From Planctomycetaceae bacterium (lineage in GTDB: Bacteria > Planctomycetota > Planctomycetia > Pirellulales > Pirellulaceae), in assembly GCA_012729315.1 (NCBI GenBank), contig JAAYDI010000063.1, positions 62,001 to 126,000 of the forward strand: a DNA stretch of 64,000 nt, given 5' to 3'. A program made the position numbers and the translations under genes. Position 1 is the stretch's first letter, and every line of letters begins with the position of its first letter. Shown piece by piece: positions 25,718-52,685 of this stretch. A model generated the notes under the pieces. The model was not told the DNA's origin, ran no database searches, and worked only from the letters and a program-made list of their open reading frames with translations.

Positions 25718-26484
25718 GGTGACCCCATCCCGGCGCCCGCCGTTGTCTCGATCAGCTGCAGGAACATCTCGGTCAGCGACTGGCAGCCGGTGCGTGCGCG
25801 GAGCTCGGCGAGGGTGCCCTCGTGCAGCAGACGCCCGTGATGCAGGAGCCCAAACCGATCGCACAGGCGTTCGGCCTCGTCCAGGCGATGCGTGCACACG
25901 ATGACCGCTTTGCCCGCATCACGCAAGTGCCGCACGTAATCGAAGATCACCTTGCTCCCCCACACGTCCAACCCCCGGGTCGGTTCGTCGAGCAGCATGA
26001 TCTGGGGCGCGTGGATCAGAGCCCGCGCCAGATTGACCCGCTGCTTCTGGCCAGTGCTGAGCGTCGCGCAGCGCTGGTCCAGAAAACGCGTCAGGCCGAG
26101 ACGTTCACTGATCCGCGCGACCGACTCCACCGCCTCCTCGGGCGGCACGTGGTACAGGTCCGCAAAAAACAGCAACGTCTCGCGCGGGGTCAGCCACGGA
26201 TACACACCCGCACTGGCCGATACCAGCCCCAGCCGCGCCTTGACCGCGTCCGGAACGTCGGTCGAACGATAGCCGTCCACCTCGGCATATCCGGCGGTCG
26301 GCTGCAGCACGCCCAGGACCATCCACAACGTGGTCGTTTTACCCGCACCGTTGGGACCCAGCAGGCCGTAGACTTCCCCCGCCTCTACCCGGAACGATAA
26401 CCGGTCGACAGCCACGAGGGTGGTGTGGCCGACGTGGAAGTGCTTGGTTAGTTCGACTACCGAAATCACGGCGTTTGCCTCCAC
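25714..26484 (-). CDS. ABC transporter ATP-binding protein (NatA-like)
   Basis: 256 residues with a complete nucleotide-binding domain: Walker [10 protein letters not shown], signature LSTGQKQR, Walker B IMLLDEPT with the catalytic Glu, and the switch His in CTHRLDEAE. It drives the permease-protease encoded directly downstream (4-bp overlap). The helical region and length match the NatA/CcmA type that pairs with ABC-2 permeases. ATG 26484 is the first codon and no better internal start was seen. Confidence 0.92.
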
Positions 26485-27024: not shown

Positions 27025-30000
27025 ATGCAATCCAATCGCCGTACGATGCAACTGAGCCTCCTGATATTGGGCGTGTGGATCGGGATCGGCCTGATCACGG
27101 CCGGAGCGGCACGAGCTGCCGACCCCGCTTTTGTGGGCATCCTGTCGCTGGCTGTCGACGAGCAGGGGGCCCGGCACCTGGGGCTGTCGGACGAAGTGCG
27201 CGAGAAACTGCGGCGGCTGGTCGACCAACGGGTGACCGAAGCGACGAATCTGGCGCTGAGTATCAAAGACCTTCCACCCGAACTGCGCGCCGAACGTTTG
27301 GCGCCGTTTGTGGCGGAGTCAGAGCGGCTGGGTTTCGAGTTGTTGACACAGGAGCAGCGGAGCAAACTCAATCAGCTGCGTCTGCAGCGTACGGGCATGG
27401 CATCGCTGGCGGACGACGAGATGGCCCGGTTGCTCGGGTTGTCGGAGGACCAGCGTGACGCGGTCACGCGGCTCATGGCGGAGCGGGCCAAGGCGATGAC
27501 GCGCGGAGGCGCGGCGGAACAGCGACTGGCGCGGGACACACACGAGCGCCAGCTGCGGTCCGTGTTGACACGCGAGCAGAAGTCGATGTGGGACCAGCTG
27601 GCCGGCGTGGGGCCCGGTCCCGCCTCACCCGCCTCACCGGCCGCCGCAGCGGCGCAGCCCGAGCCGAGCGCCGCGGAGGAGGTGGAGGAGGTGGTCGCAG
27701 CAGTGCCTGCCGCCAGCGCTCCGGAGGCACCTCGCGCGGAGCAGACGCCAGCGCCTGCAGCGCCGACGGGCGATGCGCAGCCTGCCGTCGCTGCGCCGGA
27801 AGAGCCTCAACCGGAGTCAGGGCCCGCAGAAGCGGCGGGCGAAGACGCGCCGGCGCTGCCGGCGGACGCCGCGTTTGCCGCGCCGACCGAGTTGGCGGAC
27901 ATGTGGGAGGACGACGATAACGCTCCGGGTTTCGCCGAGCGGGACCCGGAGGCGGTCAAGCTGCGGTTCAACTTCCGATACCAGCCCTGGCAGGATGTAC
28001 TGGATTGGCTGGCGGAACAGGCTGATCTGTCCCTCCAGTCCACGCTCGTTCCGGAAGGCACCTTCAACTACTCCGATTCGCAGGCGTACACGCCGAGCGA
28101 AGCGATCGACCTGATCAACGGCGTGTTGCTGCCCCAAGGGTACACGCTCGTGCGGCGCGGACGCCTGCTGTCGGTCATGAGTCTGGAGGACGAAGTGCCG
28201 GACGTGCTGGTGGAGTTCGTGCCGATCGAGAAGCTTGAGGGGCGGGGGGAATTCGAACTGGTGAAGACCGTGTTCCATCTGGCGAAACTGGAGCCGACCG
28301 AGGTGGAGCAGGAGATCCAGCAGCTGCTCGGGCCAGGACGCACGATGGTGGTCATGTCGCGGGCGCGGCAGATCATGGTGACCGAAACTGTCGGCAAGCT
28401 CCGCATGATTCGGGATGTGATCGAGAGCGCGGAGAATCCGACGGGGATCAAAGAGAAAGGGATTGCCGAGATCAAGCTGCAGTTCGTCGCGCCGGAAGAG
28501 GTGCTGACCATCGCCCGGCCGCTGCTGGGGCTGGAGGACGGGAAGGATGTCGGGCCGGACGTGAGCATCGCGGTCGATCCGCTGGGCACGCGCATCTTTG
28601 CCACCGGCTCGCGCGACAAGATCCAGATCCTGCAGGAGCTGGTAGAAAAAGTCGACATCAAACGCGAGGCGGCCACCGCCGCCGTGGCGCTCGAACAGCC
28701 GCAACTGTTGACGCATCAGCTGGGCGCGCTCGATCCGCAGGAAGCGCTGGCCGTGCTGCAGACACTGCTGGCCGGCCTTCCCGACGTGCGCATGTCGCTT
28801 GACGCCAAGACCAAGAAGATCATCGCGCTGGCCCGCCCGTCGGAACACCGCACGATCCAGGAAACGATCCGCCAGCTGGAAGGCGACGCGCCGCAGCTCA
28901 AGGTCTTCCAGGTCCGGACGATGGACGTCAAGACCATGGCCGCGGCGCTCACCAAGTTCTTCCCGCCGGCGAAAGAAGGCGATACGAGCGGCATCACGGT
29001 GGATGCCGATCCGCTCGCCGGGAAATTGCTCGTCCATGCGACACCCACACAGCTGGACCAGGTCGCCGCGTTCATTGAACAACTGGAAGGGTCGGCCGCG
29101 GGCGGGTCGACCAGCACGCTGCGGTTCATCCCGCTCACCGGCAGCGAAGCTGTATCCGCGGTGGAGATGGCGGAACGGTTGTGGCGCGGACCGAACCAGA
29201 TCCGGATGACGACTCCGTCAGAAACCGGTCCGGGAGTGATCGACCTGCGCGAAGTACCGCTCGACCCCCAGGCGATCCCGGAATATGACCCCGCGCGGCC
29301 GACGCCCGGGCCGCAGCGGAAGACCACCGGCGCGAATATCCGGCCTTCGGCTGCCGCTCCCGCTGCGCCCGAGCGGCCACGCGACAAGGTGACCTGGCAG
29401 GAAAACAAAGAGGCTGAACCGCTCGACACGGTGTCCCGCGGACCGTTTCGCCTGACCAGCTATCGGCCGGACGGGACGGCGCGGGATGACGCGGGGGAAC
29501 TTCCCGCCAGCGCCGCTGGCATGGAAGCGGCTGACGCGCAGCGCGATGATGCGCCGCCGGTGCCGCCAGTGTCGGTGACCGGACCCGCCGCGTCTGTGGC
29601 GGGCCCGCCCAGCGACATTCGCATCGAGTTCACCCCCAACGGCATTCTGATCTCGTCCGAGGACACGGTGGCGCTCGATGAGTTCGAAGAAATCCTCCGC
29701 ACTGTCATGCCGCCGTCGGCACCGGGGACGGGCAAGAACTTCACTGTCTATTTTCTCAAGCACTGCAAGGCCGAAGTGGCGCGCCAACTCATTTCGGACA
29801 TCCTGGGTGGCACGAGCGAAGGTGGCTCGGGCGGCGGGTCGCTGGTCGGAGACGTCGCTGCGAACCTGATGGGGGGAGGCGGCGGGATTCTCGGCGCGCT
29901 GCTGGGCAGCGCCGGCGGGGGCGACGGTGGTGTCGTGACGACGGTGCAGGTGACCGGCCCGGTCTCCATCGTGGCCGATACGCGACTGAACTGCCTGATC

Positions 30001-30801
30001 GTCCAGGCCCTGCCGGTCGATGTCAAACTGATCGAACAACTGCTCAAGGTGATCGACCGGGAAGGCAGCATTACGGATGTGCAGACCGCCGGCAAGCCGC
30101 ATATCCTGCCGATCCGCTATCTGGAGGCGGAACTGGTGGCCGGCCTCGTGCGGGAAGCATTCGCCAACCGGATGGTCACGGCCAGTGGAGGGCAGGCGGG
30201 TGGCCAGCCCAACCCGGTCGAACTGATCCGCGCACTGCGCGGCGGCCGCGGCGGGCGGCCCGAGGCGGACGTGAAGAGCGAAGAAGCAAAAATGACGATC
30301 ACCGTCGACAACCGCAGCAACTCGTTGATCGTGACCGCTCCCACACCGCTGTTTGAACAGGTCCGGGAACTGGTGGAGCTGATTGACGTCGGCAGCCCGG
30401 AGCTGGACGAGACGATCGAGATCGTCGAGTTCCAGTCGAATCCCGAGACCGTGCAGCGCGCCTTGTCGGCGATCACCGGAACTACGACCTCGTCGCCGTC
30501 AGGCAGCAGCCGCAGCCAGTCGGGCCAGCGCCCTGGCGGAGCCTTCGGCATGCCGTTCGGCATCCCGGCCTCCGGCGGTGCCGCGCCGTTCATGCAACGG
30601 CCACAGGGAATGGGCGGGATGCCCGGTGGCTTCGGCGGGTTTGGCGCCATGCCCGGCCTGGGGGGACAGCGCGGCGGGATGCCCGGCGCCGGCGGCGGAC
30701 AGCGCAGTGGCATGGGCGGGATGCGCGGAGGCATGCCAGGTGGCACGCGCGGAGGCACGCAACAGGGTGGGGCACGTGGCGGTGCGGGCGGCCGCCGCTA
30801 G
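27025..30801 (+). CDS. Giant secretin-N-domain (NolW repeat) protein without a secretin barrel
   Basis: 1258 residues. A Sec signal (about 1-32, ending GAARAADPA) is followed by helical Q/E/R-rich units (LLTQEQRSKLNQL, LGLSEDQRDAV), an Ala/Pro/Glu linker (about 190-270), and then four or more secretin N1/NolW modules, recognisable by a beta strand, a helix and the closing RSNSLIV or LNCLIVQ-type strand (for example LKVFQVRTMDVKTM, HILPIRYLEAELVAGLV, ITVDNRSNSLIVTAP). No C-terminal secretin barrel follows; the last 80 residues are Gly/Met/Arg-rich. It is therefore likely periplasmic and may form rings with the true secretin at 47254. ATG 27025 follows GGAG by ten bases. First gene of the T2SS locus. 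Confidence 0.75.
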   Translation: MQSNRRTMQLSLLILGVWIGIGLITAGAARAADPAFVGILSLAVDEQGARHLGLSDEVREKLRRLVDQRVTEATNLALSIKDLPPELRAERLAPFVAESERLGFELLTQEQRSKLNQLRLQRTGMASLADDEMARLLGLSEDQRDAVTRLMAERAKAMTRGGAAEQRLARDTHERQLRSVLTREQKSMWDQLAGVGPGPASPASPAAAAAQPEPSAAEEVEEVVAAVPAASAPEAPRAEQTPAPAAPTGDAQPAVAAPEEPQPESGPAEAAGEDAPALPADAAFAAPTELADMWEDDDNAPGFAERDPEAVKLRFNFRYQPWQDVLDWLAEQADLSLQSTLVPEGTFNYSDSQAYTPSEAIDLINGVLLPQGYTLVRRGRLLSVMSLEDEVPDVLVEFVPIEKLEGRGEFELVKTVFHLAKLEPTEVEQEIQQLLGPGRTMVVMSRARQIMVTETVGKLRMIRDVIESAENPTGIKEKGIAEIKLQFVAPEEVLTIARPLLGLEDGKDVGPDVSIAVDPLGTRIFATGSRDKIQILQELVEKVDIKREAATAAVALEQPQLLTHQLGALDPQEALAVLQTLLAGLPDVRMSLDAKTKKIIALARPSEHRTIQETIRQLEGDAPQLKVFQVRTMDVKTMAAALTKFFPPAKEGDTSGITVDADPLAGKLLVHATPTQLDQVAAFIEQLEGSAAGGSTSTLRFIPLTGSEAVSAVEMAERLWRGPNQIRMTTPSETGPGVIDLREVPLDPQAIPEYDPARPTPGPQRKTTGANIRPSAAAPAAPERPRDKVTWQENKEAEPLDTVSRGPFRLTSYRPDGTARDDAGELPASAAGMEAADAQRDDAPPVPPVSVTGPAASVAGPPSDIRIEFTPNGILISSEDTVALDEFEEILRTVMPPSAPGTGKNFTVYFLKHCKAEVARQLISDILGGTSEGGSGGGSLVGDVAANLMGGGGGILGALLGSAGGGDGGVVTTVQVTGPVSIVADTRLNCLIVQALPVDVKLIEQLLKVIDREGSITDVQTAGKPHILPIRYLEAELVAGLVREAFANRMVTASGGQAGGQPNPVELIRALRGGRGGRPEADVKSEEAKMTITVDNRSNSLIVTAPTPLFEQVRELVELIDVGSPELDETIEIVEFQSNPETVQRALSAITGTTTSSPSGSSRSQSGQRPGGAFGMPFGIPASGGAAPFMQRPQGMGGMPGGFGGFGAMPGLGGQRGGMPGAGGGQRSGMGGMRGGMPGGTRGGTQQGGARGGAGGRR

Positions 30802-30910: not shown

Positions 30911-30949
30911 TGACATCTGTGTGTGACATCTGTGTGTGACATCTGCATG
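30911..30949. repeat. 13-bp tandem repeat, three units
   Basis: TGACATCTGTGTG starts at 30911, 30924 and 30937 (the third unit ends differently). It lies in the leader between the giant NolW gene and the next gene. It might affect spacing or RNA folding upstream of that gene. Confidence 0.75.
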
Positions 30950-31051
30950 AGGTTCCCGCGATGTGGCGGAACCCGATTTGTTCCCGCGGGTTCAATCTTC
31001 TGGGTCCCAGTGGGGGTGCAGAGTCCGATTCCTTTTCGAGGAGACTGTCAG

Positions 31052-31870
31052 ATGAAATGGGGTAAGCAAGCGGTGGTGTGGTCAGTCGCCATGCTGTTCC
31101 TGTTGGCGTGTGTGTGCAGTGCTGAGGCACAGGGCCGACGTGGTCAGGGGCCGGGCCAGCAGCGGGGCGGGCCGGGTGGTCCGCCGCCGGGCGGGCCGGG
31201 CGGCTTCGGTGGACCTGGCATGGGCATGATGCCTGGCATGGGGGGAATGTTTGGTGGTATGGGCGGCGGCATGAGCGACGTTATGCTCCTGGCCCGTGAA
31301 GACGTCCAGAAAGAGCTCGAGCTGGTGGATGATCAACTCGAACAGATCAACAAGCTGCGTGAGACGAGCGGCCAGGAGATGCGGGACATGTTTTCCGGCC
31401 TGCGCGATCTGCCGCGCGAGGAGATGGGCCCCAAGATGGCTGAACTGATGCGGGAAGCGCAGGCCAAGACGAAGAGGGCCTTGGAGGACATCCTGCTGCC
31501 GCACCAGTCGGAACGACTCAATCAGCTGGTCGTGCAGTGGCAGCTGCAAGGTGGTGGCCTGGCGCAGAGTGACGAGGTGGCGAAAGAACTGGGAATTTCG
31601 GACGAACAACGTGATCAGCTGCGCGCCAAGACACGGGAGCTGGAACGCGCGCTGCGCAAGAAACTGGCCGAAGACCTGCTGAAAGAGCTGACGCCGGAGC
31701 AGCAGGCGAAGTACAAGGAGCTCGTCGGGGAGCCGTTTGAGTTCCAGCGGGACGAGCGGTTCGGGCCGGGTCGCGGGTTCGGCGCTCCCGGCGGGTTTGG
31801 TGGCCCCGGCGCTCCGGGTGGTCCGGGTGTCGGTCCTGCCGCTCCGCGTGGTGGCCGGCGCGGCAACTAG
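31052..31870 (+). CDS. Exported Gly-rich helical protein of unknown function
   Basis: 272 residues. A signal peptide ends near CSAEAQG; residues 30-72 are Gly/Pro/Met-rich (GGPGGPPPGG, GMGGMFGGMGGGM), the middle is helical (EDVQKELELVDDQLEQINKL; LGISDEQRDQLRAKTREL; LTPEQQAKYKEL) and the end is again Gly/Pro-rich. The helical units look like those near the N-terminus of the giant protein upstream, and in general like Spy/CpxP-type periplasmic helices. GAGGAG lies nine bases before ATG 31052. It sits between the NolW protein and gspE, so it may assist assembly of the secretion machine, but this is only positional. Confidence 0.65.
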   Translation: MKWGKQAVVWSVAMLFLLACVCSAEAQGRRGQGPGQQRGGPGGPPPGGPGGFGGPGMGMMPGMGGMFGGMGGGMSDVMLLAREDVQKELELVDDQLEQINKLRETSGQEMRDMFSGLRDLPREEMGPKMAELMREAQAKTKRALEDILLPHQSERLNQLVVQWQLQGGGLAQSDEVAKELGISDEQRDQLRAKTRELERALRKKLAEDLLKELTPEQQAKYKELVGEPFEFQRDERFGPGRGFGAPGGFGGPGAPGGPGVGPAAPRGGRRGN

Positions 31871-32080: not shown

Positions 32081-33865
32081 ATGGATCAGTCCCGCACGAT
32101 GGTGCGGGGGCGCGACCAGCCGCCTGCGGGCGAAGAGTGGGTACCAATGGATGCGGGTGAAATGCTCAAACGGCGTGGCTTGCTCAGCGACAGCCAGTTC
32201 GCTCAGCTGCGCCAAGGCAACGGCGACGGCGCCTCGTTGATCGACAAGGCGGTGGCGCTGGGCTATGTGCGGGAGGAGGCGGCGTTGCAGGCCCTGGCCG
32301 AGGAGGTGGGGCTGGAATACGTCGATCTCCGCGACATGGAGGTGGACCTGGCACTGCTGCAAAGTTTCCCCCACAAGTTGATCCACCGCGAGTCGCTGTT
32401 TCCGATCCGGCGCGACAACGGGCAGCTGATTGTGGCGACGAGCGACCCGTTCGATCTGTATCCGATTGACGAGGTGAGTGCCGCAACTGGCCTGTCGGTA
32501 GTGCCGGTGCTGGCCAGCCGCGGGCAGATTCTGGGCCTGATCAAGAAGCACCTGGGGGTGGGCAGCGAGACGGTCGAGGGGCTGCTCGAGCAGGCGAGCG
32601 ACCGCGATGTGGAGTTGCTCGACGAAATCGAGGCCGACGGATCAGAGCTGTCGGAGATGGCGCAGGAGGCGTCGGTCGTGCGGCTGGTCAACGAGATTCT
32701 GCTGGAGGCGATCGAGACGCGTGCGAGCGACGTGCACATCGAGTCGCAGGCAGCGGGACTGGTGATCCGGTATCGTGTGGACGGGATCCTGCATCCGCAG
32801 CCGGTGCCCCCCGAGATCAACCGGTTTCAGGCGGCCATCATCAGCCGCCTGAAGATCATGTCGCATCTGAACATCGCCGAACGCCGGTTGCCGCAGGACG
32901 GCCGGATCAAGCTGCGGGTGAAAGGGCGCGAAATCGACGTGCGTGTGTCGGTCATTCCCATGATCCATGGCGAAGGGCTGGTGCTGCGTATCCTCGACAA
33001 GGGGGCGATGGTGTTCGAACTGCGCAGCCTGGGGATGGACCCCGACACGTACAGGCTGTTCGGAGAACTGATCCGGTTGCCCCACGGCATCATCCTGGTG
33101 ACAGGCCCCACCGGCTCCGGCAAGACCACGACGCTCTACAGCGCGCTGATTGAGATCAACAGTCCCGACACCAAGATCATCACGACGGAAGATCCGGTCG
33201 AATACCAGTTGGCCGGGATCAACCAGATCCAGGTGCATCCCAAGATCGGGTTGACTTTTGCCGGCTCTCTGCGCGCGATCCTGCGGCACGACCCGGACGT
33301 GGTCCTGATCGGGGAAATCCGCGACCTGGAGACGGCGGAGAACGCGATCCAGGCGGCGCTGACCGGCCACCTCGTGTTCAGCACGCTGCACACGAACGAC
33401 GCGGCGGGCGCCTATGCCCGTTTGTCGGACATGGGGGTGGAGCCGTTCCTGGTGGCCAGCACGGTGGAGGCGGTCATGGCCCAACGCCTGGTGCGCCGTC
33501 TGTGCATACACTGCCGCGAACCATATACCCCGGATCGGGACGCCATGCCGGCCGACTTCCCCTGGGATCGCCTGGGGGACCGTCCACTCTACCGCAAGGT
33601 CGGTTGCCGCGAGTGCCGCCACGTCGGCTACAGCGGGCGGTTGGGGATCTACGAGCTGCTGCTGACCGACAATAACATCCGGCAGTTGGCGCACGATCGC
33701 GCGAGCACGTGGCGCATCAAGCAGACGGCGGTCCGGCAGGGGATGATGACGTTGCGCGATGACGGTTGGCGCAAGGCCATCGAGGGGGTGACCACTGTGG
33801 ATGAGGTGCTCCGCATCACAAAGGGTGATCAGGATCTGGCCGAGTTGGACAAACTGGTGCGTTGA
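32081..33865 (+). CDS. gspE: Type II secretion ATPase GspE
   Basis: 594 residues. An N1E-type N-terminal domain is followed by the AAA-like core: Walker A GPTGSGKTTT (342-351), the Asp box around ITTEDPVEYQ, Walker B LIGEIRD and the His box TLHTNDAAG. A tetracysteine zinc site is present (LCIHC, then VGCREC about 40 residues later), as in GspE. Drives pseudopilus growth at the cytoplasmic face of the inner membrane. Head of the compact gspE-F-G-H-I-J-K series. The start is uncertain: ATG 32081 has GAGGG directly against it, while ATG 32147 (MDAGEMLKRRG) gives an N-terminus closer to the family. Confidence 0.93.
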   Translation: MDQSRTMVRGRDQPPAGEEWVPMDAGEMLKRRGLLSDSQFAQLRQGNGDGASLIDKAVALGYVREEAALQALAEEVGLEYVDLRDMEVDLALLQSFPHKLIHRESLFPIRRDNGQLIVATSDPFDLYPIDEVSAATGLSVVPVLASRGQILGLIKKHLGVGSETVEGLLEQASDRDVELLDEIEADGSELSEMAQEASVVRLVNEILLEAIETRASDVHIESQAAGLVIRYRVDGILHPQPVPPEINRFQAAIISRLKIMSHLNIAERRLPQDGRIKLRVKGREIDVRVSVIPMIHGEGLVLRILDKGAMVFELRSLGMDPDTYRLFGELIRLPHGIILVTGPTGSGKTTTLYSALIEINSPDTKIITTEDPVEYQLAGINQIQVHPKIGLTFAGSLRAILRHDPDVVLIGEIRDLETAENAIQAALTGHLVFSTLHTNDAAGAYARLSDMGVEPFLVASTVEAVMAQRLVRRLCIHCREPYTPDRDAMPADFPWDRLGDRPLYRKVGCRECRHVGYSGRLGIYELLLTDNNIRQLAHDRASTWRIKQTAVRQGMMTLRDDGWRKAIEGVTTVDEVLRITKGDQDLAELDKLVR

Positions 33866-33901: not shown

Positions 33902-35101
33902 ATGCCTGACTTTGTCTATGTTGCCCGCGATCCGGCTGGCCAGCGCGTCACTGGTTCGATTGCCGCAGCGAGCCGGCGGGAAGCGGTGACGTTGCTGGCG
34001 GGTCAGTCGCTGTTCCCGCTGCACGTGACGACCGAGAAGCCGAAGACGAAGCTGGTGGGTGGGCGGATCAAGGGGCAGACGATGGCGATCACCTACTCGC
34101 AGCTCGCGTCGCTCCTGCGCAGCGGCGTGCCGCTGCTCCGCTCCCTCGATGTGCTGCGCAAACAGGCGTCCAACCAGGCGCTGGCCCGAGTGCTGGGAGA
34201 AGTGCGTGACCACCTGGAACAGGGGGACACGCTGGGGGATGCGATCGCGCGGTACCCGCACGTGTTCAGCGAGATGGCGATCAACATGGTGCGGGCCGGG
34301 GGCGAGGGGGGGTTCCTCGAAGAGGCGCTCGAACGCGTGGCGCAGTTCACCGAACAGCAGGAGGACCTGAAGGCTCGCACCATCGGCGCGCTGGCCTACC
34401 CCATATTCCTGGCTGCCGTCGGGACGACCATCGTGACGACCCTGATTGTCTTCTTTGTGCCGCAGTTCGAGGATCTGTTCCAGTCGTTGCGGGAACGGGG
34501 CGAACTGCCGGTGCTGACCGACTGGCTGCTGTGGTTCAGCAAGACGTTGCAGTCCTACGGCCTGTTCATCCTGCTGGGCCTGGTCATTGTCGGCGTGGTG
34601 ATCAAAGCCAAACTGGCGACGGAGGAAGGCCGCCGGCTGCGCGACCGCGCGAAATTGAAGCTGCCGTTGCTCGGCGTCGTGTTCCAGTACCTGGCGGTTG
34701 CCCGGTTCTGCCGCGTACTCGGAACGTTGCTCCGGAACGGAGTGCCGATCCTGAAATCGCTGGAAATCAGTCGCGACACGTCGGGGAACCGGATCCTGTC
34801 CGAGGCCATCCATGGCGCGTCCGACAACATCTCGTCGGGTGAGTCGCTGGCGGCGCCGCTGGCCGCCTCCGGGCATTTCCCGGTCACCGTTGTCGAGATG
34901 ATCAGTGTGGCGGAAGAGTCCAATACGTTGGATAAGGTGTTAGTCGAGATAGCGGACAGTCTGGAGAAACAGACTGCTCGGCGGCTCGATCTGGCCGTGC
35001 GCCTGCTCGAGCCCATCCTGCTGCTGTTCCTGGCTGGTGCCGTGCTGTTCGTTGTGATCGCGCTCTTGATGCCGGTTATCAAGATGAGTAGTGCAATGTG
35101 A
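33902..35101 (+). CDS. gspF: Type II secretion inner membrane protein GspF
   Basis: 399 residues with two homologous cytoplasmic helical halves (LLRSGVPLLRSLDVL near 75; LLRNGVPILKSLEIS near 285) and three membrane helices, near 165, 220 and 375. This is the GspF/PilC platform that couples the ATPase to pseudopilin assembly. It starts 36 bases after gspE and ends just ahead of gspG. Length and motifs match the family; nothing unusual. Confidence 0.95.
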   Translation: MPDFVYVARDPAGQRVTGSIAAASRREAVTLLAGQSLFPLHVTTEKPKTKLVGGRIKGQTMAITYSQLASLLRSGVPLLRSLDVLRKQASNQALARVLGEVRDHLEQGDTLGDAIARYPHVFSEMAINMVRAGGEGGFLEEALERVAQFTEQQEDLKARTIGALAYPIFLAAVGTTIVTTLIVFFVPQFEDLFQSLRERGELPVLTDWLLWFSKTLQSYGLFILLGLVIVGVVIKAKLATEEGRRLRDRAKLKLPLLGVVFQYLAVARFCRVLGTLLRNGVPILKSLEISRDTSGNRILSEAIHGASDNISSGESLAAPLAASGHFPVTVVEMISVAEESNTLDKVLVEIADSLEKQTARRLDLAVRLLEPILLLFLAGAVLFVVIALLMPVIKMSSAM

Positions 35102-39660: not shown

Positions 39661-41304
39661 ATGGCCAGACTGCTTGCGATTGAGTGGGATGAAAGGGAGG
39701 CGCGGGTGGCGGTAGCCACGCCGCACGGCGAGGAAGTAGTGGTCGAAGATGCGTTTGCCATCGACATCTCGGCTGCGGCGGCCGCCGATGCGGCGGACGA
39801 TGCGAGCCAGGACGATGCGAGTCGGGACGATGCGAGCCAGGGCAACGCGAGCCAGGTGGGGCGGTGCATCGCGCAGGCGCTGGCCGCGCGGGGGCTGACC
39901 GGCGGCGATGTACTGGTGGGGTTGGGGCGAACCAGTATCGAGCTGCGTTCCATTTCGTTGCCTCCGGCGCCGCCGGAAGAACTTCCTGACATGGTCCGGT
40001 TCCAGGCCATGCAGGCGTTTGCGGCGATCAGCGAGGACTGGCCGCTGGACTTCGTGGAACTGGGCGCTCAGGACGGCACACTCCAGGTGCTGGCGGCCGT
40101 GGTGTCCCCGAAGCAGGTTGAGCAGATCCTGCGGGTCTGTGCGGCCGCGGAGCTCGCGCCGCGCTGCCTCGTGCTACGGCCGTTCGCGGCGGCGTCCCTG
40201 TTGAGTCGTGGCGATGTGCTGGCCGAAGGCCGCAACGCGCTGATGGTCGACATGCTGGCCGACGGGGCCGATCTGACAGCCATCTCACGGGGGCAGGTCG
40301 TGTTCATGCGCACGGTGCGCCGGCCGGCCACCGACGATCCGGCCGTGCAGGCCCGCGCTCTGGTCGGCGAAGCGCGCCGCACGATCGGCGCGGCACAGGC
40401 TCAGATGGGCGGTCAGCGGATCGAACAGGTGATCATCTGCGGAAGCGAGTCCGAGCATCCGGAGCTGATGCAGGCGCTGGCCGATGCCCTGTCCCTGGAA
40501 GTCGTGCGGTTCGATCCGTTTCGCGCCGTGCGACTGGCGCGGGGACTGGAGCGGCAGTTGCCTGCCGATGCCGGACGCTACACGCCGCTGCTGGGAATGC
40601 TGGCCGACGTCGCGGCCGGCGTCCCCCACGCCATCGACTTCCTCAACCCGCGCAAGCGGCCGGTGCCGCGCAGCAACCGGCAGCGGAATGTGCTGATCGC
40701 GGCCGGCAGCCTGGCGGCGGTCGGCGTCGTGGTGCTCGGTGTCTGGGGCGGACTCAAGTATCTGGACCGGCAGATCGCAGACCTCAATGCCCAGGTCGCT
40801 GAGCTGGACAAGCAGGTGGCGGCGGCCCGCGAGCTGATGGCCGACGTGGATGCCGTGTCGGACTTCGTCGGCGGCGATGTGACCTGGCTCGACGAACTGC
40901 ACGAACTGGCGCGCCGCATGCCCGGCGCTGAGCAGATCAAACTCAATGACGTGACGATTACGACCGGCAATGTGAAGCGGGGCGGGGTGATCGCCCTTAA
41001 AGGGCACGTGCAGAACGCGGACGTGATCGCCAGGTTCGAAGACTCGCTGCGTTACGAGGACCATGTGGTGCGGGGCAGGTCGGCTATACCCGATCAGAAG
41101 TCCGCCGACTATCCCTACGCACTCGATACCACGGTCACCGTGGAGCCGGACACGTACGATCGCGGACGATCGCTGGGACGCCCCTTCCGCGACAAGCTGC
41201 GCGCCGCGGCCGATGCTGACACGCCTGCCCGCGCTCCAACCGGTACGCCGGACGCGGACGCGGACGCTCAGCCGGCGCAGACGACAGAGGGGGACGCAGC
41301 ATGA
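39661..41304 (+). CDS. PilM/GspL-like actin-fold protein fused to a PilN-like membrane domain
   Basis: 547 residues. Residues 1-330 have the actin-like fold of PilM/GspL (start RLLAIEWDEREARVAVA; PPAPPEELPDMVRFQA; ALMVDMLADGADLTAISRG). A membrane helix at about 340-362 (VLIAAGSLAAVGVVVLGVW) is followed by the PilN-type coiled coil (LNAQVAELDKQVAAARELM) and a ferredoxin-like domain, then an Ala/Asp/Pro-rich end. This equals a PilM-PilN fusion, the layout GspL also has. Residues 47-65 contain a short tandem motif (DASQ, DDASR, DDASQ, GNASQ). It overlaps the next gene by ATGA. Forms the inner platform between GspE and the periplasm. Confidence 0.8.
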   Translation: MARLLAIEWDEREARVAVATPHGEEVVVEDAFAIDISAAAAADAADDASQDDASRDDASQGNASQVGRCIAQALAARGLTGGDVLVGLGRTSIELRSISLPPAPPEELPDMVRFQAMQAFAAISEDWPLDFVELGAQDGTLQVLAAVVSPKQVEQILRVCAAAELAPRCLVLRPFAAASLLSRGDVLAEGRNALMVDMLADGADLTAISRGQVVFMRTVRRPATDDPAVQARALVGEARRTIGAAQAQMGGQRIEQVIICGSESEHPELMQALADALSLEVVRFDPFRAVRLARGLERQLPADAGRYTPLLGMLADVAAGVPHAIDFLNPRKRPVPRSNRQRNVLIAAGSLAAVGVVVLGVWGGLKYLDRQIADLNAQVAELDKQVAAARELMADVDAVSDFVGGDVTWLDELHELARRMPGAEQIKLNDVTITTGNVKRGGVIALKGHVQNADVIARFEDSLRYEDHVVRGRSAIPDQKSADYPYALDTTVTVEPDTYDRGRSLGRPFRDKLRAAADADTPARAPTGTPDADADAQPAQTTEGDAA

Positions 41305-42503
41305 ACCGGCGCGAACAAATCCTGGCTACCCTCGTGGGCCTGCTCGTCGTAGTGACCGTTTTGAACTTCGCCCTGAAACGCGTCTTCAGCCAGTTCAGCG
41401 ACCGGACCGACAGGATCGCCACGCTGGAGTCGGACATCCAGTCGAAGGAACTGATCATCCACCGTGGCGCAGTCGCCGAACGTGTGCTCAAGATGTACCG
41501 GGAACGTTCGCTGCCGAGCGATCCGGACCTGGCAAGCTCGCGTTATCGGGAATGGCTGCTCAAGTGGACGGAAGGCGCGCAGGTGCGCGGGTCGAACGTC
41601 AGCCACACCAGCTGGTATCCGGTCGCGAAGTCACATGGCCGGCACAAGTTCCAGGTGAACTGCGAGGCGACCCTGGCACAGCTTGTCGACCTGCTGTTCG
41701 GCTTCTACTCGTCCGACCACCTGCACCGGATCGTGATGCTCAAGGCCAAGGCTCATCCGGACGGCAAGCTGCTGACGATGAACATCACGGTCGAAGCGAT
41801 CGGCATGACCGGTGCCGAGAAGGACACCCTGTCTGATATGCCGGCCCAGCGGCTGGCGTTCGCCCAGGCGGACGCGTACCACGAGACGATCGTCGGTCGC
41901 AATTTCTACGGGCCTGCCAACAAGCCGCCGCATTTCACCTCCAGTGCATCGCAGCAGGGGTATGTGCAGCGGCCGCTGTCAGTGACCCTCCAGGCCGAGG
42001 ATCCCGACAAGCACGCCGTTCGCTTCCGGCTGGATCAGTGCGACATCGAGGAGCTGAGCGTCGACGCCGGGAGCGGGCGGATTGAATGGACCCCGGACCG
42101 CGTCGGGGAATTCGAGATCGTCGTCTCTGCCGTGGACGACGGCGTGCCGGCCAAGGAGACGTCGCAGACAGTCCGGCTGACCATCACGGAGCCGCCGCCG
42201 CAGGAGGCGCCACCGCCGCGCCGGTCGTTTGACGAAGCGAAATATACCTTCGTCACGGGGATCGTCGAGATCAACGGGCGACGCCAGGTGTGGTTGACCG
42301 TCCGCACGGATGGCAAGTGGCTGCGGCTGTTTGAGGGGGAGACGTTCCAGGTCGGCGCGTTCGAAGGCAAGATCCTCAAGATCCATCCGCGGCACGTGGA
42401 GATTGCCTCGCAGGATACCGTCGTGTCAGTGCGGTACGGCCAGAGCATCAGCGACGGGGAAGAAATCGAGGGGGGACCGGACGTCGCCGCATCGCCCCGG
42501 TAG
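41301..42503 (+). CDS. PilO-like inner membrane protein with cadherin-like and PilP-like parts
   Basis: 400 residues. A short N-tail, one membrane helix (LATLVGLLVVVTVLNFAL) and a coiled coil (RIATLESDIQSKELIIHRG) are followed by a PilO/GspM-type ferredoxin-like domain (about 100-180). Residues 200-295 form an Ig/cadherin-like domain (VTLQAEDPDKHAVRFRLD, then IEWTPDRVGEFEIVVSAVDD). The C-terminal 95 residues (RQVWLTVRTDGKWLRLFEG, then ILKIHPRHVEI) look like the beta domain of PilP/GspC that touches the secretin. This would join the roles of GspM and GspC in one chain. Translationally coupled to the PilM-like gene. Domain calls beyond the PilO part are inferred from patterns only. Confidence 0.65.
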   Translation: MNRREQILATLVGLLVVVTVLNFALKRVFSQFSDRTDRIATLESDIQSKELIIHRGAVAERVLKMYRERSLPSDPDLASSRYREWLLKWTEGAQVRGSNVSHTSWYPVAKSHGRHKFQVNCEATLAQLVDLLFGFYSSDHLHRIVMLKAKAHPDGKLLTMNITVEAIGMTGAEKDTLSDMPAQRLAFAQADAYHETIVGRNFYGPANKPPHFTSSASQQGYVQRPLSVTLQAEDPDKHAVRFRLDQCDIEELSVDAGSGRIEWTPDRVGEFEIVVSAVDDGVPAKETSQTVRLTITEPPPQEAPPPRRSFDEAKYTFVTGIVEINGRRQVWLTVRTDGKWLRLFEGETFQVGAFEGKILKIHPRHVEIASQDTVVSVRYGQSISDGEEIEGGPDVAASPR

Positions 42504-42736
42504 CTGCGCCGGACGACGCGTGCCTGCCAGCCGATCAGTGGGATAGGCCGGTCACGGGTCAGCACAGTAATATATCGGCTGGGCCGGCGCGCATGCGTGT
42601 TTGCTCCCGCGAGTGTCTGACAGGCCGTGCCCCGCACGTCCAGGCGAGTGGACGTTCGGCGCTGGCGGACTGCGACTGCGCAGGTGCCCGCTCCCTCGCC
42701 GGCGGGCACCCGCTCATCCACTGCCAGGAGGTATCT

Positions 42737-43141: not shown

Positions 43142-43143
43142 AG

Positions 43144-44703: not shown

Positions 44704-44787
44704 GCCGCGGTGGGCCGGGCCGGCGCCGCCCCGACCCCCGCGCACGCCGCCGTCCGGCCGGCCCGGAGCACTGACAAAGGAACCCGC

Positions 44788-45267: not shown

Positions 45268-45279
45268 CGGAACCCACGC

Positions 45280-47253: not shown

Positions 47254-50200
47254 ATGACGATGGTGGCGGAAGGCAGCACAATCGAAGGCAGGCGACCGCG
47301 TCTGGTTCTGATTCCCGCGTTGAGTGCACTATGCATCGCGAGTGTACTGGCCGTGTGTTGCAATCGCGGGATGGCCGCGGCACCGGGCGGCGGCAACAGC
47401 TCGATATACCCCCTGGCGCATGCGGATGCGGAAACCGTTGGTCCGCAGCTGCAGGGGCTGTTGAACGACTACGGCGCGGAAGCCCAGGTAGTGTTTGACC
47501 GGTCAAAGAACCAGCTGGTCGTCCAGGGTGCGGAGGCCTCGCGGCAGCTGGCCGGTCAGCTCATCGCCACGCTCGACAAGGCCCCGAATCAACCGGCAGC
47601 GACGGCCGAGTTAGGGAAGGTGGCCGGCTACGCGATTGACCCGGACCGCCTGGATGCGACGGCCGCAGCGCTTCAGCAGCGGTTTCCACCGTCGACCGGC
47701 GTGCGGGTAGCGCCGGATCGACGCACGTCGCAGTTGGTCGTGATTGCGCCACCGGCCATGCAGACGCAGGTGGCCGCTTTCCTGCAAGCTGATGCGGTGA
47801 CGCCGGCAGCGGCCGGCGGGACACGCCTGGATCCCTATCGCCTGCAGAACATCTCCTGGCGGGATTTCGAGGCGAGCCTGGTGCGCCTGTGGGGCAACGG
47901 CCTGGTGATCACTCCGGACGCGTCGGGCCGGCTCGCCACGGTGCACCTGGCATCCGATCCGGCCCGGCAGGCCGTGCTGCAGATCGATCGCCAAACACAC
48001 GAGGTCCTGTTTCCGGGAGCCGCCGACGCCAGCCGATCATGGCGACAGGTGACGGCTGCCCTGGACCGTTCGCCGACCGCGCGCGGGATGACCACTCAGC
48101 TAGTGCCGCTGCGCCGTGCCGACCCGGCCCAGGTCCAGCAGGCGGTGTCGATGATCCGGGACGCCGCGTTACGGACCCAATCGGGCGAGACGCTGGCGGC
48201 GGTGCCAGTGTCTCAGCCGGGTAAACCGCGCAGTGCCGTCAATCTGGTATCGATGATCTTCCAGGATGCCCGGGAGGCCGCGCACGCGGCACCGGCACAG
48301 GAGGCACAGGAGGCACAGGAGGAGGAACGAGAGGAGGAGATGTCGCCGGAGCAGGCGCCGGGGGCCGAGTTGCAGCCGTCGCCGGACCAACCTTCCTTGC
48401 CGGGCGAACCGGGTGCGGGACAAGGCGCGGAATCCGATGGATTGCTGGGCGATGTGCAGATCGAGTTCGTGCCGGAACTCGGCGTGGTGATTCTGCGCGG
48501 CAATCGGCGCGATGTGGAGAAGATCCAGAAGATCATTGCGGACATCGAAGAGAAGAGTGAAGCCACGCGTCCCGAAATCCGGCTGGTCACGCTCGAACAC
48601 ACTAACAGCGAGTCGATGACGACGCTGGTGACATCCATCTATTCGGAAGTCTATCAGCCACGTCAGGGACCGTTGACCATCACGGCGCTCGTCAAGCCCA
48701 ACGCCATTCTGATGATCGGCCGTCTGGAGAACATCAAGACGGTGGTGAACCTGATCGAGAAGCTCGATCAGCCGGTGCCGCCGGAAAGCCAGATCAAGGT
48801 CTTCCGGCTGTTGCACATGTCGGCGGTCAATGCCGAGACGTACATCCGCAACTTCTATGGTGCGGCTGGGGGCGTGGCGGGCGTGGCGGTCGGCGCGCAA
48901 CAGGCTCAGCAGACCGCCCGCGGACTCTCGCCGCGCATCACCGTTATTGGCGACTACCGCAGCAACTCGCTGATCGTCCAGGCCAGTCCGCGCGACCTGC
49001 TTGAAGTGGGCAAACTGCTCGAGGAACTCGACGTGGCCAAGACCGAGGCCAGCATCGAAGTCCGTGTGTTTCCGCTGAAAAACTCGGTGGCCTCCGCCTT
49101 GACCCAGGTGCTGCAGAGCACGCTGGCCATGCAGCAGATGCAGGGGACGGCCGGCATGCAGGGTTTCCAGCCCATGCAGATGATGGCGCAGGGTCAGCAG
49201 CAGACCGCCGTGTCCAAGAGCATCCAGATTGTCGGCATCGACCAGGAGGGCAACAAGATCATCGAATCGGGTCTGCTGAACGATGTGACGGTGACGGCTG
49301 ATGACAATTCGAACACGGTCGTCGTCAAGGCACCGGCGGAGAGCATGGGGCTGATCGCCGCGCTGATCGAACAACTGGACAAGATCCCGGCGGCCGAATC
49401 GCTGATCAAGGTCTTCCAGATCAAGAACGGGGACGCAACCAATCTGACCGCCATGCTGCAGACGCTGTTCGGCCAACAGGTGACGGCCGGCCAGGTCGGG
49501 GTGTTCTCGCAGACGGTTGGACGGACATTCGGCATGCAGGGGCCGCTGCAGCAGGTGAGCGCCGGAGAGAGCTCGTTGATCCCCCTGAATTTCGGCGTCG
49601 ACGCGCGGACCAACAGCATCGTAGCCTCCGGTTCGGCGGCCGACCTGGCGGTGGTGGAGGCGATCCTGATGCGGTTGGACGAGGGGGACTTGCGGCAGCG
49701 CAAGCTGATCGTCTACCGGTTGAACAACGCGCCGGCCCAGTATGTCGCCGACGCGCTGACCACCATCCTGAACGAACAGTACCAGTTGCTGTCGCAGCAG
49801 CAGTCGCAGCAGTACTCGCTGATCAGTCAGTTCGAAATCATCGACCAGCAGATCTCGGTCGTGCCGGAGGTCATCAGCAACACGCTGATCGTGAGTGCGA
49901 CCCCGAAGTACTACGAGCAGATCACCGAGGTGATCGAGGATCTCGACCGGCGTCCACCCATGATCATGATCCAGGTCGTCGTGTGCCTGGTGCGGCTGGA
50001 CGATTCGGAGGAGATGGGTGTGGAACTGGGGCTGCAGGATTCCCTGCTGTTCGATCGCAGTGCGACCGCCAGCGGGCTGCTGGACCCGGGGTTCAATTTC
50101 GCCAACCAGCCGCTGGGGAATGCCAGCAGCGCTGGCTCGCTGGCCACGCGCGGCAAGCTGGCGGGGCAGGCCTTCGGATCGTTCGCGGTCGGCCGCTCGA

Positions 50201-51432
50201 GTGCCGCAGAAGGCTTTCCGGGGCTGGTGCTGTCGGCGGCGAACGAGTCGATCAACATCCTGATTCGAGCGCTGGTCAAGAAGTCGCGCGTGCAGGTGCT
50301 CAGCCGGCCGCAGATCATGACACTCAACAACGTCCCGGCCTCCGTGCTGATCGGCCAGCGGATTCCGCAGATCACGGACTTCCAGACAACCACTGCCGGT
50401 AACACCGTCAACTCAGTTGAACTGGTGGATACCGGCGTGTCGCTCGGTGTGATCCCGCGCGTGACGCCCGACGGGCTGATCATCATGGACCTGGAAGCCA
50501 ACGATTCGAAGGCCGGCGACCCGGCCGACGGCATTACGATCGGCGTCCAGGACGGCGTGCCGATCCAGTCGCCCATTTATGACGACGTCACCGCGATCAC
50601 CACGATCGCCGCGCGCAGCGGCCAGACGGTGGTCTTCGGCGGCCTGATCACCAGCGAGCGGACGGATACCTTCCGCGGCGTGCCCTACCTGTCGGACATC
50701 CCGGTCCTGGGGCATCTGTTCCGGTTCGACACCAAGTCGGACGGCCGCCAGGAACTGCTGTTCTTCCTGACCCCCCACATCGTGATGGACGACGACGACG
50801 TGCGGACACTCAACCAGCGCGAAGCCGACCGCATGAGCTGGTGTCTGGCCGACGTGGTCCAGATCCACGGTGACCCGGGATTCGGAGCCAGCCGCATCGA
50901 CACCTGGAACGAAGGCACGCCACTGATCTATCCGAGTGTGGACCCCACCGCCGAAGGCGCGATACCCATGGATGGATCCGAGGCGGTGCCGATGCCGCCC
51001 GGGCAGCCGATCATGGAGTACAGCGCGCCCGGCGCGACCGGCAAACCATTTGTGTTGCCGCCCGACCAGCGTCAGGAAGGCAAACCGTTCATCCTGCCGC
51101 CCGCGGAGCGTCAGGAAGGGAAACCGTTCGTGCTGCCCGAAGGGGAATTGCCCCAGGGGCGGCCGTTCATCGAAGGACAGAATCAGTCACTGCGGCAGCC
51201 ACCGGCCGGTCCGCTCGACTTGCAGCCGGCCAACGCCTGGCGGGCACCACCGGCGCAGGAGCCGTACCAGACCGACGCGACCCCCACCCCGGCCACGGTA
51301 ATCCCGGCGGCCGCCTCCGAGCTGGCGGGCGGGCAGGAGCCTGCGCCGCTGAGCAATATGCCGCTGAGCAATATGCCGCCCGCGCCGTCCGCCTCGCAGC
51401 GCCCGTATTCGCAGTTTCCCTACGTGAAGTGA
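47254..51432 (+). CDS. gspD: Type II secretion-type secretin with extra N- and C-terminal regions
   Basis: 1392 residues, about twice the usual GspD. A signal peptide (about 15-42, ending GMAAAPG) is followed by N1/NolW-like modules, an acidic linker with a 9-bp DNA repeat (AQEAQEAQEEE near 348-360), and five further NolW modules, each starting with a strand such as VFRLLHMS, VFPLKNSV, VFQIKNGD and VYRLNNAP. The secretin barrel is at about 900-1180 (RVQVLSRPQIMTLNN; VELVDTGVSLGVIPRV; GVPYLSDIPVLGHLF). The C-terminal 200 residues hold three repeats of about 15 residues on the theme GKPFVLPP. It forms the outer membrane pore. GGGGAA lies four bases before the ATG. Separated from gspE-K by the metabolic operon. 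Confidence 0.93.
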   Translation: MTMVAEGSTIEGRRPRLVLIPALSALCIASVLAVCCNRGMAAAPGGGNSSIYPLAHADAETVGPQLQGLLNDYGAEAQVVFDRSKNQLVVQGAEASRQLAGQLIATLDKAPNQPAATAELGKVAGYAIDPDRLDATAAALQQRFPPSTGVRVAPDRRTSQLVVIAPPAMQTQVAAFLQADAVTPAAAGGTRLDPYRLQNISWRDFEASLVRLWGNGLVITPDASGRLATVHLASDPARQAVLQIDRQTHEVLFPGAADASRSWRQVTAALDRSPTARGMTTQLVPLRRADPAQVQQAVSMIRDAALRTQSGETLAAVPVSQPGKPRSAVNLVSMIFQDAREAAHAAPAQEAQEAQEEEREEEMSPEQAPGAELQPSPDQPSLPGEPGAGQGAESDGLLGDVQIEFVPELGVVILRGNRRDVEKIQKIIADIEEKSEATRPEIRLVTLEHTNSESMTTLVTSIYSEVYQPRQGPLTITALVKPNAILMIGRLENIKTVVNLIEKLDQPVPPESQIKVFRLLHMSAVNAETYIRNFYGAAGGVAGVAVGAQQAQQTARGLSPRITVIGDYRSNSLIVQASPRDLLEVGKLLEELDVAKTEASIEVRVFPLKNSVASALTQVLQSTLAMQQMQGTAGMQGFQPMQMMAQGQQQTAVSKSIQIVGIDQEGNKIIESGLLNDVTVTADDNSNTVVVKAPAESMGLIAALIEQLDKIPAAESLIKVFQIKNGDATNLTAMLQTLFGQQVTAGQVGVFSQTVGRTFGMQGPLQQVSAGESSLIPLNFGVDARTNSIVASGSAADLAVVEAILMRLDEGDLRQRKLIVYRLNNAPAQYVADALTTILNEQYQLLSQQQSQQYSLISQFEIIDQQISVVPEVISNTLIVSATPKYYEQITEVIEDLDRRPPMIMIQVVVCLVRLDDSEEMGVELGLQDSLLFDRSATASGLLDPGFNFANQPLGNASSAGSLATRGKLAGQAFGSFAVGRSSAAEGFPGLVLSAANESINILIRALVKKSRVQVLSRPQIMTLNNVPASVLIGQRIPQITDFQTTTAGNTVNSVELVDTGVSLGVIPRVTPDGLIIMDLEANDSKAGDPADGITIGVQDGVPIQSPIYDDVTAITTIAARSGQTVVFGGLITSERTDTFRGVPYLSDIPVLGHLFRFDTKSDGRQELLFFLTPHIVMDDDDVRTLNQREADRMSWCLADVVQIHGDPGFGASRIDTWNEGTPLIYPSVDPTAEGAIPMDGSEAVPMPPGQPIMEYSAPGATGKPFVLPPDQRQEGKPFILPPAERQEGKPFVLPEGELPQGRPFIEGQNQSLRQPPAGPLDLQPANAWRAPPAQEPYQTDATPTPATVIPAAASELAGGQEPAPLSNMPLSNMPPAPSASQRPYSQFPYVK

Positions 51433-51446
51433 GGTGATGGACCACA

Positions 51447-52685
51447 ATGACTCGGTCTCTTTTCCAGCTTCTGGGACTCGCCGCCAGCCTGACGCTCATG
51501 GTGCTGTCTGGTTGCGCCACGAAGGAACTGGCGCTGAACAAGGCCCTGCCCTGGTCCGGGGCGAAGGAAAGATACGAAACGCCTGAGAAGGTGATTGCGA
51601 TCTGGACCGACGCCGTCTACCAGTTGCCGAGTAAGCCCCCTACCCGTGGCTTCGGCGGACGCGTGTACTTCTACAACGCGGACGACGACGTGATTCCGGT
51701 CAATGGGCAGCTGGTCGTGTATGCCTTTGACGATTCGGATCCCATGGCCAGCACCGACCGGCCATCCCGCAAATACGCCTTCACGGCAGAACAGCTGACC
51801 AACTACTACAGCAATTCGGACCTGGGAGCGTCCTACAACATCTGGATCCCCTGGGATGAAGTGGGGGGCGACGAGAAACAGATCGCGCTCTTCCCGGTGT
51901 TTGTCGACGAATCGGGCAAGACCGTCCGCGGCACGTTCGCCAACAACCGCCTGCCGGGCAAGCGAGTGGTCACCGAAGAGGAGCGTCGTGGTTTCTACAT
52001 CTCGCGCACTCGCCGGCAAGGCGCTCAGGTCGTCTCGCAACAGGAGTCCGGTGTCAGACCGGTCAGCTATGAAGAGGCCGGCCCCGCGGACGGGGCGACC
52101 GCAGACAAGGAAAAGCCGGGTCTGGTGACCACCACGATCCGCGTACCACGCAGTTTGTCAGAACGCATGGCCGGCGGCCACGGCGCGATCGTGCCGCAGT
52201 CCCCTAGCGTGACGACGCTGTCCAGCCCGGCAGCTGTGCCCGCTCACCCGGCCGGATCCGTTCCTGGCGCTGGACCGTCGCCAGCCAGTTGGTCGCCCGG
52301 CCCACATACGGCTCAGCCCCCTGCGGATGCAGCCTCGGCAAACCCACAGGTCCCGGCCGCGTCGTCCTATCCGATCCCTGCAACCGGCACGGCTCCCGCA
52401 CCATCCGTATTGCCATCCGCAGGCCAGTCCGCATTGCCACCTGCGGGCCAGACTGTGCCACAGCCAGCCCTGCCGCTCGGGCAACAGGGGTTTATTGGCG
52501 CTGATCCACAGCTCTCGACGTCGGCTCGCTCGCGGGCTTGGGCACGGCAGGATCCACGAGCAGCTCGTTTCGAACCGCCTCAATTCCGGGCTCCAGCATC
52601 GCCAGGTTCTCGAGCACGCCTCGCACGTGCTCCGTTGCAACCGTCCCGGTCAACACCGCCGTACTCCCTTCCATCGACACCGTGA
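51447..52685 (+). CDS. Probable outer membrane lipoprotein of unknown function
   Basis: 412 residues. A lipoprotein signal, LMVLSGCATKE, puts the lipid-carrying Cys at residue 23. Residues 40-195 are a compact unit (FGGRVYFYNADDDVIPVNGQLVVYAF; SDLGASYNIWIPWDEVGGDEKQIALFPVFVDES) that I recognise only as a conserved planctomycete lipoprotein domain. The rest is Pro/Ala/Ser-rich. The gene follows the secretin by 14 bases, so it may be a pilotin-like or accessory part. The final 65 residues are antisense to the end of the BON gene and look Arg/Pro-rich and random, so the original stop may have been lost. Confidence 0.7.
   Translation: MTRSLFQLLGLAASLTLMVLSGCATKELALNKALPWSGAKERYETPEKVIAIWTDAVYQLPSKPPTRGFGGRVYFYNADDDVIPVNGQLVVYAFDDSDPMASTDRPSRKYAFTAEQLTNYYSNSDLGASYNIWIPWDEVGGDEKQIALFPVFVDESGKTVRGTFANNRLPGKRVVTEEERRGFYISRTRRQGAQVVSQQESGVRPVSYEEAGPADGATADKEKPGLVTTTIRVPRSLSERMAGGHGAIVPQSPSVTTLSSPAAVPAHPAGSVPGAGPSPASWSPGPHTAQPPADAASANPQVPAASSYPIPATGTAPAPSVLPSAGQSALPPAGQTVPQPALPLGQQGFIGADPQLSTSARSRAWARQDPRAARFEPPQFRAPASPGSRARLARAPLQPSRSTPPYSLPSTP

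What the first reader, a model, noticed from the sequence alone, without database searches (positions are those of the whole stretch)
27025..30801. Giant NolW-repeat protein with no secretin barrel at the head of a T2SS locus
It has four or more secretin N-domain modules and a Gly/Met-rich end but no pore domain. Together with a true secretin of 1392 residues, it suggests an extended periplasmic channel or a second ring, much larger than in model T2SS.
Basis: partly seen in the sequence, partly recalled or inferred. Interest (0 to 1): 0.52.

Follow-up and report, generated by a model that had tools for sequence, protein, structure and literature searches.

The report
Two-piece secretin of a planctomycete T2SS
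In these planctomycete bacteria the long channel that exports proteins across the cell envelope appears to be built from two different proteins, one carrying the docking base and extra ring domains and the other carrying the membrane pore, which would be a new layout for a well-studied secretion machine.

Summary
The 1258-residue product of 27025-30801 ("X") has no secretin barrel. It carries a Spy/LTXXQ-like N-terminal domain, a GspD-type N0 domain, seven N1-type domains, a conserved stub and a Gly/Met-rich tail, and it heads a T2SS operon. The true secretin of the same locus ("D", 47254-51432) has 8-9 N1-type domains and the barrel but, by sequence, no N0. The split holds in related genomes: 69 of 69 X have N0 and no barrel; 30 of 30 D have a barrel and no N0. 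X and D occur together in 48 of 60 related genomes, both are missing in 9, and D is never alone. A second T2SS has the same split with an X of 2304-3749 residues. Other planctomycete families carry all parts fused in one secretin of about 4200-4600 residues. A third family has N0 on both X and D. Best reading: X supplies the N0 base and extra rings of a two-polypeptide secretin that bridges a wide periplasm. Composition and linkage are shown; ring formation, X-D contact and the inner-membrane partner are inferred. New variant of a known kind.

The parts
27025..27117 (+). signal peptide of X (by eye, ...AGAARA/ADP)
   Evidence: sequence
27136..27600 (+). Spy/LTXXQ-like N-terminal domain of X
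   Evidence: BLASTP of 27070-27640 against the product of 30923-31870: 30% identity over 153 aa, E 5e-10; that product has a sub-threshold LTXXQ match
27601..27954 (+). Ala/Pro/Glu-rich linker of X
   Evidence: sequence
27961..28185 (+). N0 domain of X (residues 313-387)
   Evidence: model 13-92 vs 4jtm_A (GspD N0) Z 11.2, rmsd 2.4 over 80; vs 3oss_D Z 10.0, rmsd 1.9 over 76; PF21305 in 62 of 84 relatives at E<=1, best 4.5e-7, but not in the window's own protein
28258..29088 (+). N1-type domains 1-4 of X (residues 412-470, 481-543, 560-620, 624-688)
29119..30384 (+). N1-type domains 5-7 of X, two of them split by long disordered inserts
30418..30480 (+). conserved C-terminal stub of X (strand-like plus helix, like the first half of another N1 domain)
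30517..30798 (+). Gly/Met/Arg-rich tail of X
   Evidence: sequence
30923..31870 (+). separate Spy/LTXXQ-like secreted protein with Gly/Met-rich stretches
32081..33865 (+). GspE ATPase
   Evidence: PF00437 E 2.4e-136
33902..35101 (+). GspF
   Evidence: PF00482
35098..35559 (+). GspG major pseudopilin
   Evidence: PF08334
35572..39583 (+). GspH-, I-, J- and K-like minor pseudopilin genes
   Evidence: PF07963, PF02501, PF11612, PF21687 matches; the matches of the H-, I- and J-like genes to PF07963, PF02501 and PF11612 respectively lie below the curated cut-offs
39661..41304 (+). GspL-like (PilM-like head, then TM and PilN/GspM-like part)
   Evidence: sub-threshold PF11104 and PF04612, sequence
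41301..42503 (+). GspM/PilO-like membrane protein with cadherin-like insert and an unassigned C-terminal domain (42228-42455)
   Evidence: HR-domain test negative
47254..51432 (+). secretin D: signal peptide, 8-9 N1-type domains (from about 47395), no N0, PF00263 barrel at 50269-50784
51447..52685 (+). lipoprotein next to D, conserved beside D (possible pilotin-like accessory)
   Evidence: neighbours in L168, L173, L175, L178, L183

Best explanation
X is a barrel-less paralogue of the T2SS secretin that forms the inner-membrane-side half of a two-polypeptide secretin. Its N0 domain is the base that docks on the inner-membrane platform, as GspD N0 does on GspC. Its seven N1-type domains stack as extra periplasmic rings under D, which brings 8-9 more N1-type domains and the outer-membrane barrel. 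D has given up its own N0 to X. The Spy-like domain and Gly-rich tail are accessory. Shown: domain composition, the reciprocal N0/barrel split, operon linkage, co-occurrence, fused relatives. Inferred: ring formation, X-D stacking, docking, and the link to a wide periplasm.
For: Six Secretin_N stretches and no PF00263 in X; PF00263 in D. X model: N0 plus seven N1-type domains; N0 matches solved GspD N0 structures. N0 absent from D: profile comparison of the X N0 profile with the D alignment gives 0.8%, and D's third domain is like an N1-type domain of X (91.6%, E 8e-7), not like N0 (5.8%). 69 of 69 complete non-redundant X have N0 and none a barrel; 30 of 30 D have a barrel and none N0. X sits within 4.5 kb before GspE in 17 of 45 testable loci and near D in L087, L112 and L115. 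X in 51 of 60 and D in 51 of 60 related genomes; counting weak barrel-only D hits (G006, G046, G047) as absent: both 48, X only 3, D only 0, neither 9 (Fisher p 1.5e-8, not corrected for kinship). A second system repeats the split in contiguous clusters X2-E-F-G-H-I-J-K-L-M-D2-lipoprotein (G008, G034). Fused N0-(44 to 51 N1)-barrel secretins exist in G061, G093, G154 and G170. The isolated XcpQ N-domain forms rings without its C-domain (PMC5646246, abstract), and GspC HR binds N0 at the secretin base (PMC6882859, passages).
Against: No call shows X oligomerising or touching D. No GspC is recognised in the genome (PF11356, 0 matches, control rang), and the candidate C-terminal domain of the GspM-like protein matched neither GspC HR nor PilP beyond chance. 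In 28 of 45 loci X is not followed by GspE within 4.5 kb. In family f21 D keeps its own N0 while X is present, so the split is not a plain cut of one gene. A structural aligner put D's third domain in the N0 place of XcpQ in rows 1, 2, 4 and 5 (rmsd 4.3-5.7). A stack of about 57 separate rings (G008) would be implausibly long.
Confidence: 0.62

Rival explanations
1. X is a T2SS part but not a stacked ring: its N-domain string is a flexible periplasmic tether or scaffold (GspB-like role) that hooks the platform to the secretin or to peptidoglycan.
For: Long disordered inserts inside two N-domains and a Gly-rich tail; very long X2 forms (47-48 N1 in G008) are easier to picture as strings than as rings.
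Against: N1-type domains in secretins are ring-building modules, and isolated XcpQ N-domains form rings (PMC5646246, abstract); fused giants place the same string directly before a barrel.
Confidence: 0.2
2. X forms a second, separate ring (for example around the platform or on substrates), with its Spy-like domain acting as a substrate chaperone, and does not share a channel with D.
For: Spy/LTXXQ-like N-terminal domain plus a separate Spy-like gene next door; f21 has N0 on both X and D.
Against: Absence of N0 from D where X is present in 30 of 30 D and the fused giants point to one shared stack.
Confidence: 0.13
3. X is a degenerate secretin copy without function in secretion.
For: It lacks the barrel.
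Against: Conserved across 69 non-redundant complete ORFs with invariant N0 positions; co-occurrence with D.
Confidence: 0.03

Closest known systems
GspD/PulD/XcpQ T2SS secretin
   Same: N0, N1-type domains and barrel of the same folds; X alone gives solved GspD chains as its best matches
   Different: GspD has N0, N1-N3 and the barrel in one chain, reaching ~20 nm into the periplasm (PMC6882859, passages). Here N0 and barrel are on two proteins and N1-type domains total 15-16
Thermus thermophilus PilQ
   Same: Precedent for extra stacked N-rings in a wide periplasm: six rings N0-N5, channel ~35 nm, periplasm ~70 nm (PMC5745081, PMC4463427, passages)
   Different: One polypeptide, six rings; a type IV pilus secretin
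Giant single-chain planctomycete secretins (G061, G093, G154, G170)
   Same: N0, long run of N1-type domains, barrel
   Different: All on one chain of about 4200-4600 aa with 44-51 N1-type domains; no X seen in the 15.6-20 kb fetched around each
Myxococcus KilC
   Same: A secretin reported to lack N0 (PMC8460266, passage)
   Different: Short, Tad-like; no N0-bearing partner is described in the passages seen
Xanthomonas VirB7 / Legionella DotD
   Same: N0-like domain on a separate protein (PMC3093366, search listing only; chains 3ov5 and 3ady)
   Different: T4SS lipoproteins (recalled for DotD) with one N0-like domain, not a run of N1-type domains

Membership tests
T2SS secretin GspD (TIGR02517), tested on X | secretin barrel PF00263 | tested here: not met
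   no match at E<=1 in X; 0 of 69 relatives
T2SS secretin GspD (TIGR02517), tested on X | NCBIfam score over cut-off 351.35 | tested here: not met
   122.3 bits, best stretch at residues 353-549
T2SS secretin GspD (TIGR02517), tested on X | N0 followed by N1-type domains | tested here: met
T2SS secretin GspD (TIGR02517), tested on D | secretin barrel PF00263 | tested here: met
   E 2e-42
T2SS secretin GspD (TIGR02517), tested on D | N0 domain | tested here: not met
   0 of 30 by local N0 profile; PF21305 not among the 25 of 39 families shown for 33 members; profile comparisons. Structural alignment of the third domain is equivocal
T2SS secretin GspD (TIGR02517), tested on D | NCBIfam score over cut-off 351.35 | tested here: not met
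   345.2 bits, just below
Type II secretion system (locus) | GspE, F, G and minor pseudopilins in one cluster | tested here: met
Type II secretion system (locus) | GspC with HR domain | tested here: not met
   PF11356 0 matches in the genome, control rang in 2 of 14 named genomes; HR-like C-terminus of 41301-42503 not supported
Type II secretion system (locus) | protein export activity | not testable with these tools
   needs experiment

The most novel reading that the evidence does not exclude
Planctomycete T2SS use a heteromeric secretin: a barrel-less protein carries the N0 docking base and a variable number of ring domains, and an N0-less secretin carries the pore. Channel length is tuned by N1-domain copy number, from about 4 to more than 50 across the phylum, in fused or split form, to bridge an enlarged periplasm.
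Probability: 0.45. Interest if true: 0.8.

Novelty: new variant of a known kind. Interest (0 to 1): 0.64.

Why it matters
Secretins are described as single-chain homo-oligomers with N0 at the base. A split between N0 and barrel on two co-occurring genes, plus fused giants with about 50 N-domains, would show that the periplasmic channel is modular and can grow. It gives a direct test of how secretion machines bridge the enlarged planctomycete periplasm (PMC5394234, passages). It may also help explain why models built mostly on Proteobacteria predict few T2SS elsewhere (PMC4793230, passage: very few T2SS predicted outside Proteobacteria).

Tried and rejected
A barrel hidden in the C-terminal 300 residues of X: rejected. 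N0 hidden in D: rejected on sequence profiles, with an equivocal structural alignment. GspC HR at the C-terminus of 41301-42503: not supported; the top solved-structure hits were designed Pizza propellers matched by a short repeat, an artefact. A sequence-only N0 search of solved structures was weak, best E 0.044 and XcpQ at E 1.5, so N0 rests on fold and on PF21305 in relatives. A PilP search of the genome was uninformative because no control rang. An N0 tree (21 rows) puts all 13 X together with weak support (72/50) and warns of long branches; it does not rule out one origin of X. Literature: the listings showed no description of a split or giant planctomycete secretin (titles and abstract starts only, except the papers cited); most subscription papers are not held. 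One paper (passages) gives a mean secretin size of 555 +/- 151 aa.

Full report
Observation. The ORF at 27025-30801 encodes 1258 residues. Pfam gives six Secretin_N stretches (E 5.7e-46) and no Secretin domain; the locus's true secretin at 47254-51432 has eight Secretin_N stretches and PF00263 at 1006-1177. NCBIfam's GspD model scores 122.3 bits on X and 345.2 on D against a cut-off of 351.35. Downstream of X lie a Spy/LTXXQ-like gene, GspE, GspF, GspG, H-, I-, J- and K-like genes, a GspL-like gene and a GspM-like gene. Then come a thioesterase-like gene, indolepyruvate-oxidoreductase-like genes and an AMP-binding gene, then D and a lipoprotein.

Anatomy of X. AlphaFold2 on residues 296-1165 with 69 aligned sequences gave mean pLDDT 76 (440 of 870 residues at 90 or more). 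It shows an N0 fold, then seven N1-type domains, the fifth and sixth interrupted by disordered inserts, and a conserved stub; there is no barrel. The N0 part matches ETEC GspD N0 (4jtm_A, Z 11.2, rmsd 2.4 over 80 residues) and the GspC-bound GspD (3oss_D, Z 10.0, rmsd 1.9 over 76). Pfam's GspD N0 model matches 62 of 84 aligned members at E<=1 (best 4.5e-7) but not the window's own protein. The N-terminal domain of X is related to the Spy-like gene next door (E 5e-10).

Anatomy of D. The model of residues 39-870 (33 aligned sequences, mean pLDDT 71) is a run of N1-type domains that starts directly after the signal peptide. The X N0 profile does not match the D alignment (0.8%). D's third domain was placed in the N0 position of XcpQ by the structural aligner (rows 1, 2, 4 and 5; rmsd 4.3-5.7). 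By profile it is like an N1-type domain of X (91.6%, E 8e-7) and not like N0 (5.8%). I read D as lacking N0.

Relatives. A scan of genome contigs kept 80 loci (of 125 confirmed), nearly all titled as planctomycetes and one only as 'bacterium'. Among complete non-redundant ORFs in loci L025-L164 and the window, 69 of 69 with N0 have no barrel and 30 of 30 with a barrel have no N0. In 45 loci with a closed X and at least 4.5 kb downstream, GspE follows on the same strand within 4.5 kb in 17; in the other 28 it does not, and in most of those no T2SS gene is in the fetched stretch. At the thresholds of the calls, X is in 51 of 60 and D in 51 of 60 related genomes. Three of those D hits (G006, G046, G047) are weak matches to other secretins; counted as absent, the table is both 48, X only 3 (G006, G025, G046), D only 0, neither 9 (Fisher p 1.5e-8, not corrected for kinship).

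Second system and other states. A second T2SS has the same split, with X2 of 3749 aa in G008 and 2304 aa in G034 in contiguous clusters X2-E-F-G-H-I-J-K-L-M-D2-lipoprotein; D2 has no N0. Pfam counts 27 Secretin_N stretches in the G008 X2; local profiles count 47-48 N1 domains at a median spacing of 66.5 residues. In the window's own genome X2 probably lies in two pieces at contig ends (C71 with N0 and 21 N1; C21 with 11 N1, followed by GspE to L) and D2 is on C46. In 149 genomes sampled across the phylum, 20 match the N0 profile at E<=1e-8. Six of these, in family f21, have both an X-type ORF with N0 and a separate barrel-bearing ORF with its own N0; in G107 the order is X-E-F-G-H-I-J-K-L-M-D-lipoprotein. 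Four others carry giant single-chain secretins: N0, 44 to 51 N1 and a barrel in open frames of 4217 to 5073 residues. The 5073-residue frame has its likely start about 480 residues in (by eye), so the proteins are about 4200-4600 residues.

How it likely works. In model systems N0 sits at the secretin base and binds GspC HR, and the assembly reaches about 20 nm into the periplasm (PMC6882859, passages). Isolated XcpQ N-domains form rings without the C-domain (PMC5646246, abstract). Thermus PilQ uses six rings to span most of a wide periplasm (PMC5745081, PMC4463427, passages). Planctomycetes have a periplasm that can be greatly enlarged (PMC5394234, passages). The simplest reading is that X forms the base and lower rings and D the upper rings and pore of one channel. 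At a rough 3-5 nm per ring (my estimate), 16 rings would give some 50-80 nm. The same sum for the 57 N-domains of the G008 system is implausibly long, which keeps the tether rival alive.

Origin. Since f21 keeps N0 on D as well as X, duplication of a secretin, loss of the barrel in X, then loss of N0 from D in the order of the window fits better than a single cut. The N0 tree is compatible but weak. The fused giants show that one secretin can carry such a long run of N-domains.

Open point. The inner-membrane partner of N0 is not identified: no GspC is recognised, and the unassigned C-terminal domain of the GspM-like protein is only a candidate.

Verdict. The reciprocal split of N0 and barrel over two genes, its conservation, and the fused giants make this a new variant of a known machine, not an ordinary GspD.

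Noticed in passing
window 23516-26484 (-) and L166:1941-5033 (+): An ABC ATPase gene beside a gene fusing an ABC-2 permease with a Rce1-like (CAAX protease) domain lies next to X in the window and also near the third barrel-less N-domain protein (X3) on contig C97.
   Followed up: no
L166:8416-11631 (-): X3: a 1071-aa barrel-less protein with N0 and 6 N1-type domains, not in a recognised T2SS context (neighbours: SpoU methylase, amidohydrolase, ABC transporter).
   Followed up: partly
L176:1307-16525, L179:2083-14733, L180:4067-17968, L181:2336-16597: Giant single-chain secretins with N0, 44-51 N1-type domains and a barrel in other planctomycete families.
   Followed up: partly
window 42593-46593: Thioesterase-like, indolepyruvate-oxidoreductase-like and AMP-binding (PaaK-like) genes sit between the T2SS platform genes and the secretin.
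   Followed up: no
window 51447-52685: Lipoprotein gene directly after D, kept beside D in both T2SS types and in family f21; no Pfam match; a pilotin-like role is a guess.
   Followed up: partly
window 41301-42503: GspM-like protein with a cadherin-like insert and an unassigned conserved C-terminal domain; the insert is absent in the second T2SS.
   Followed up: partly
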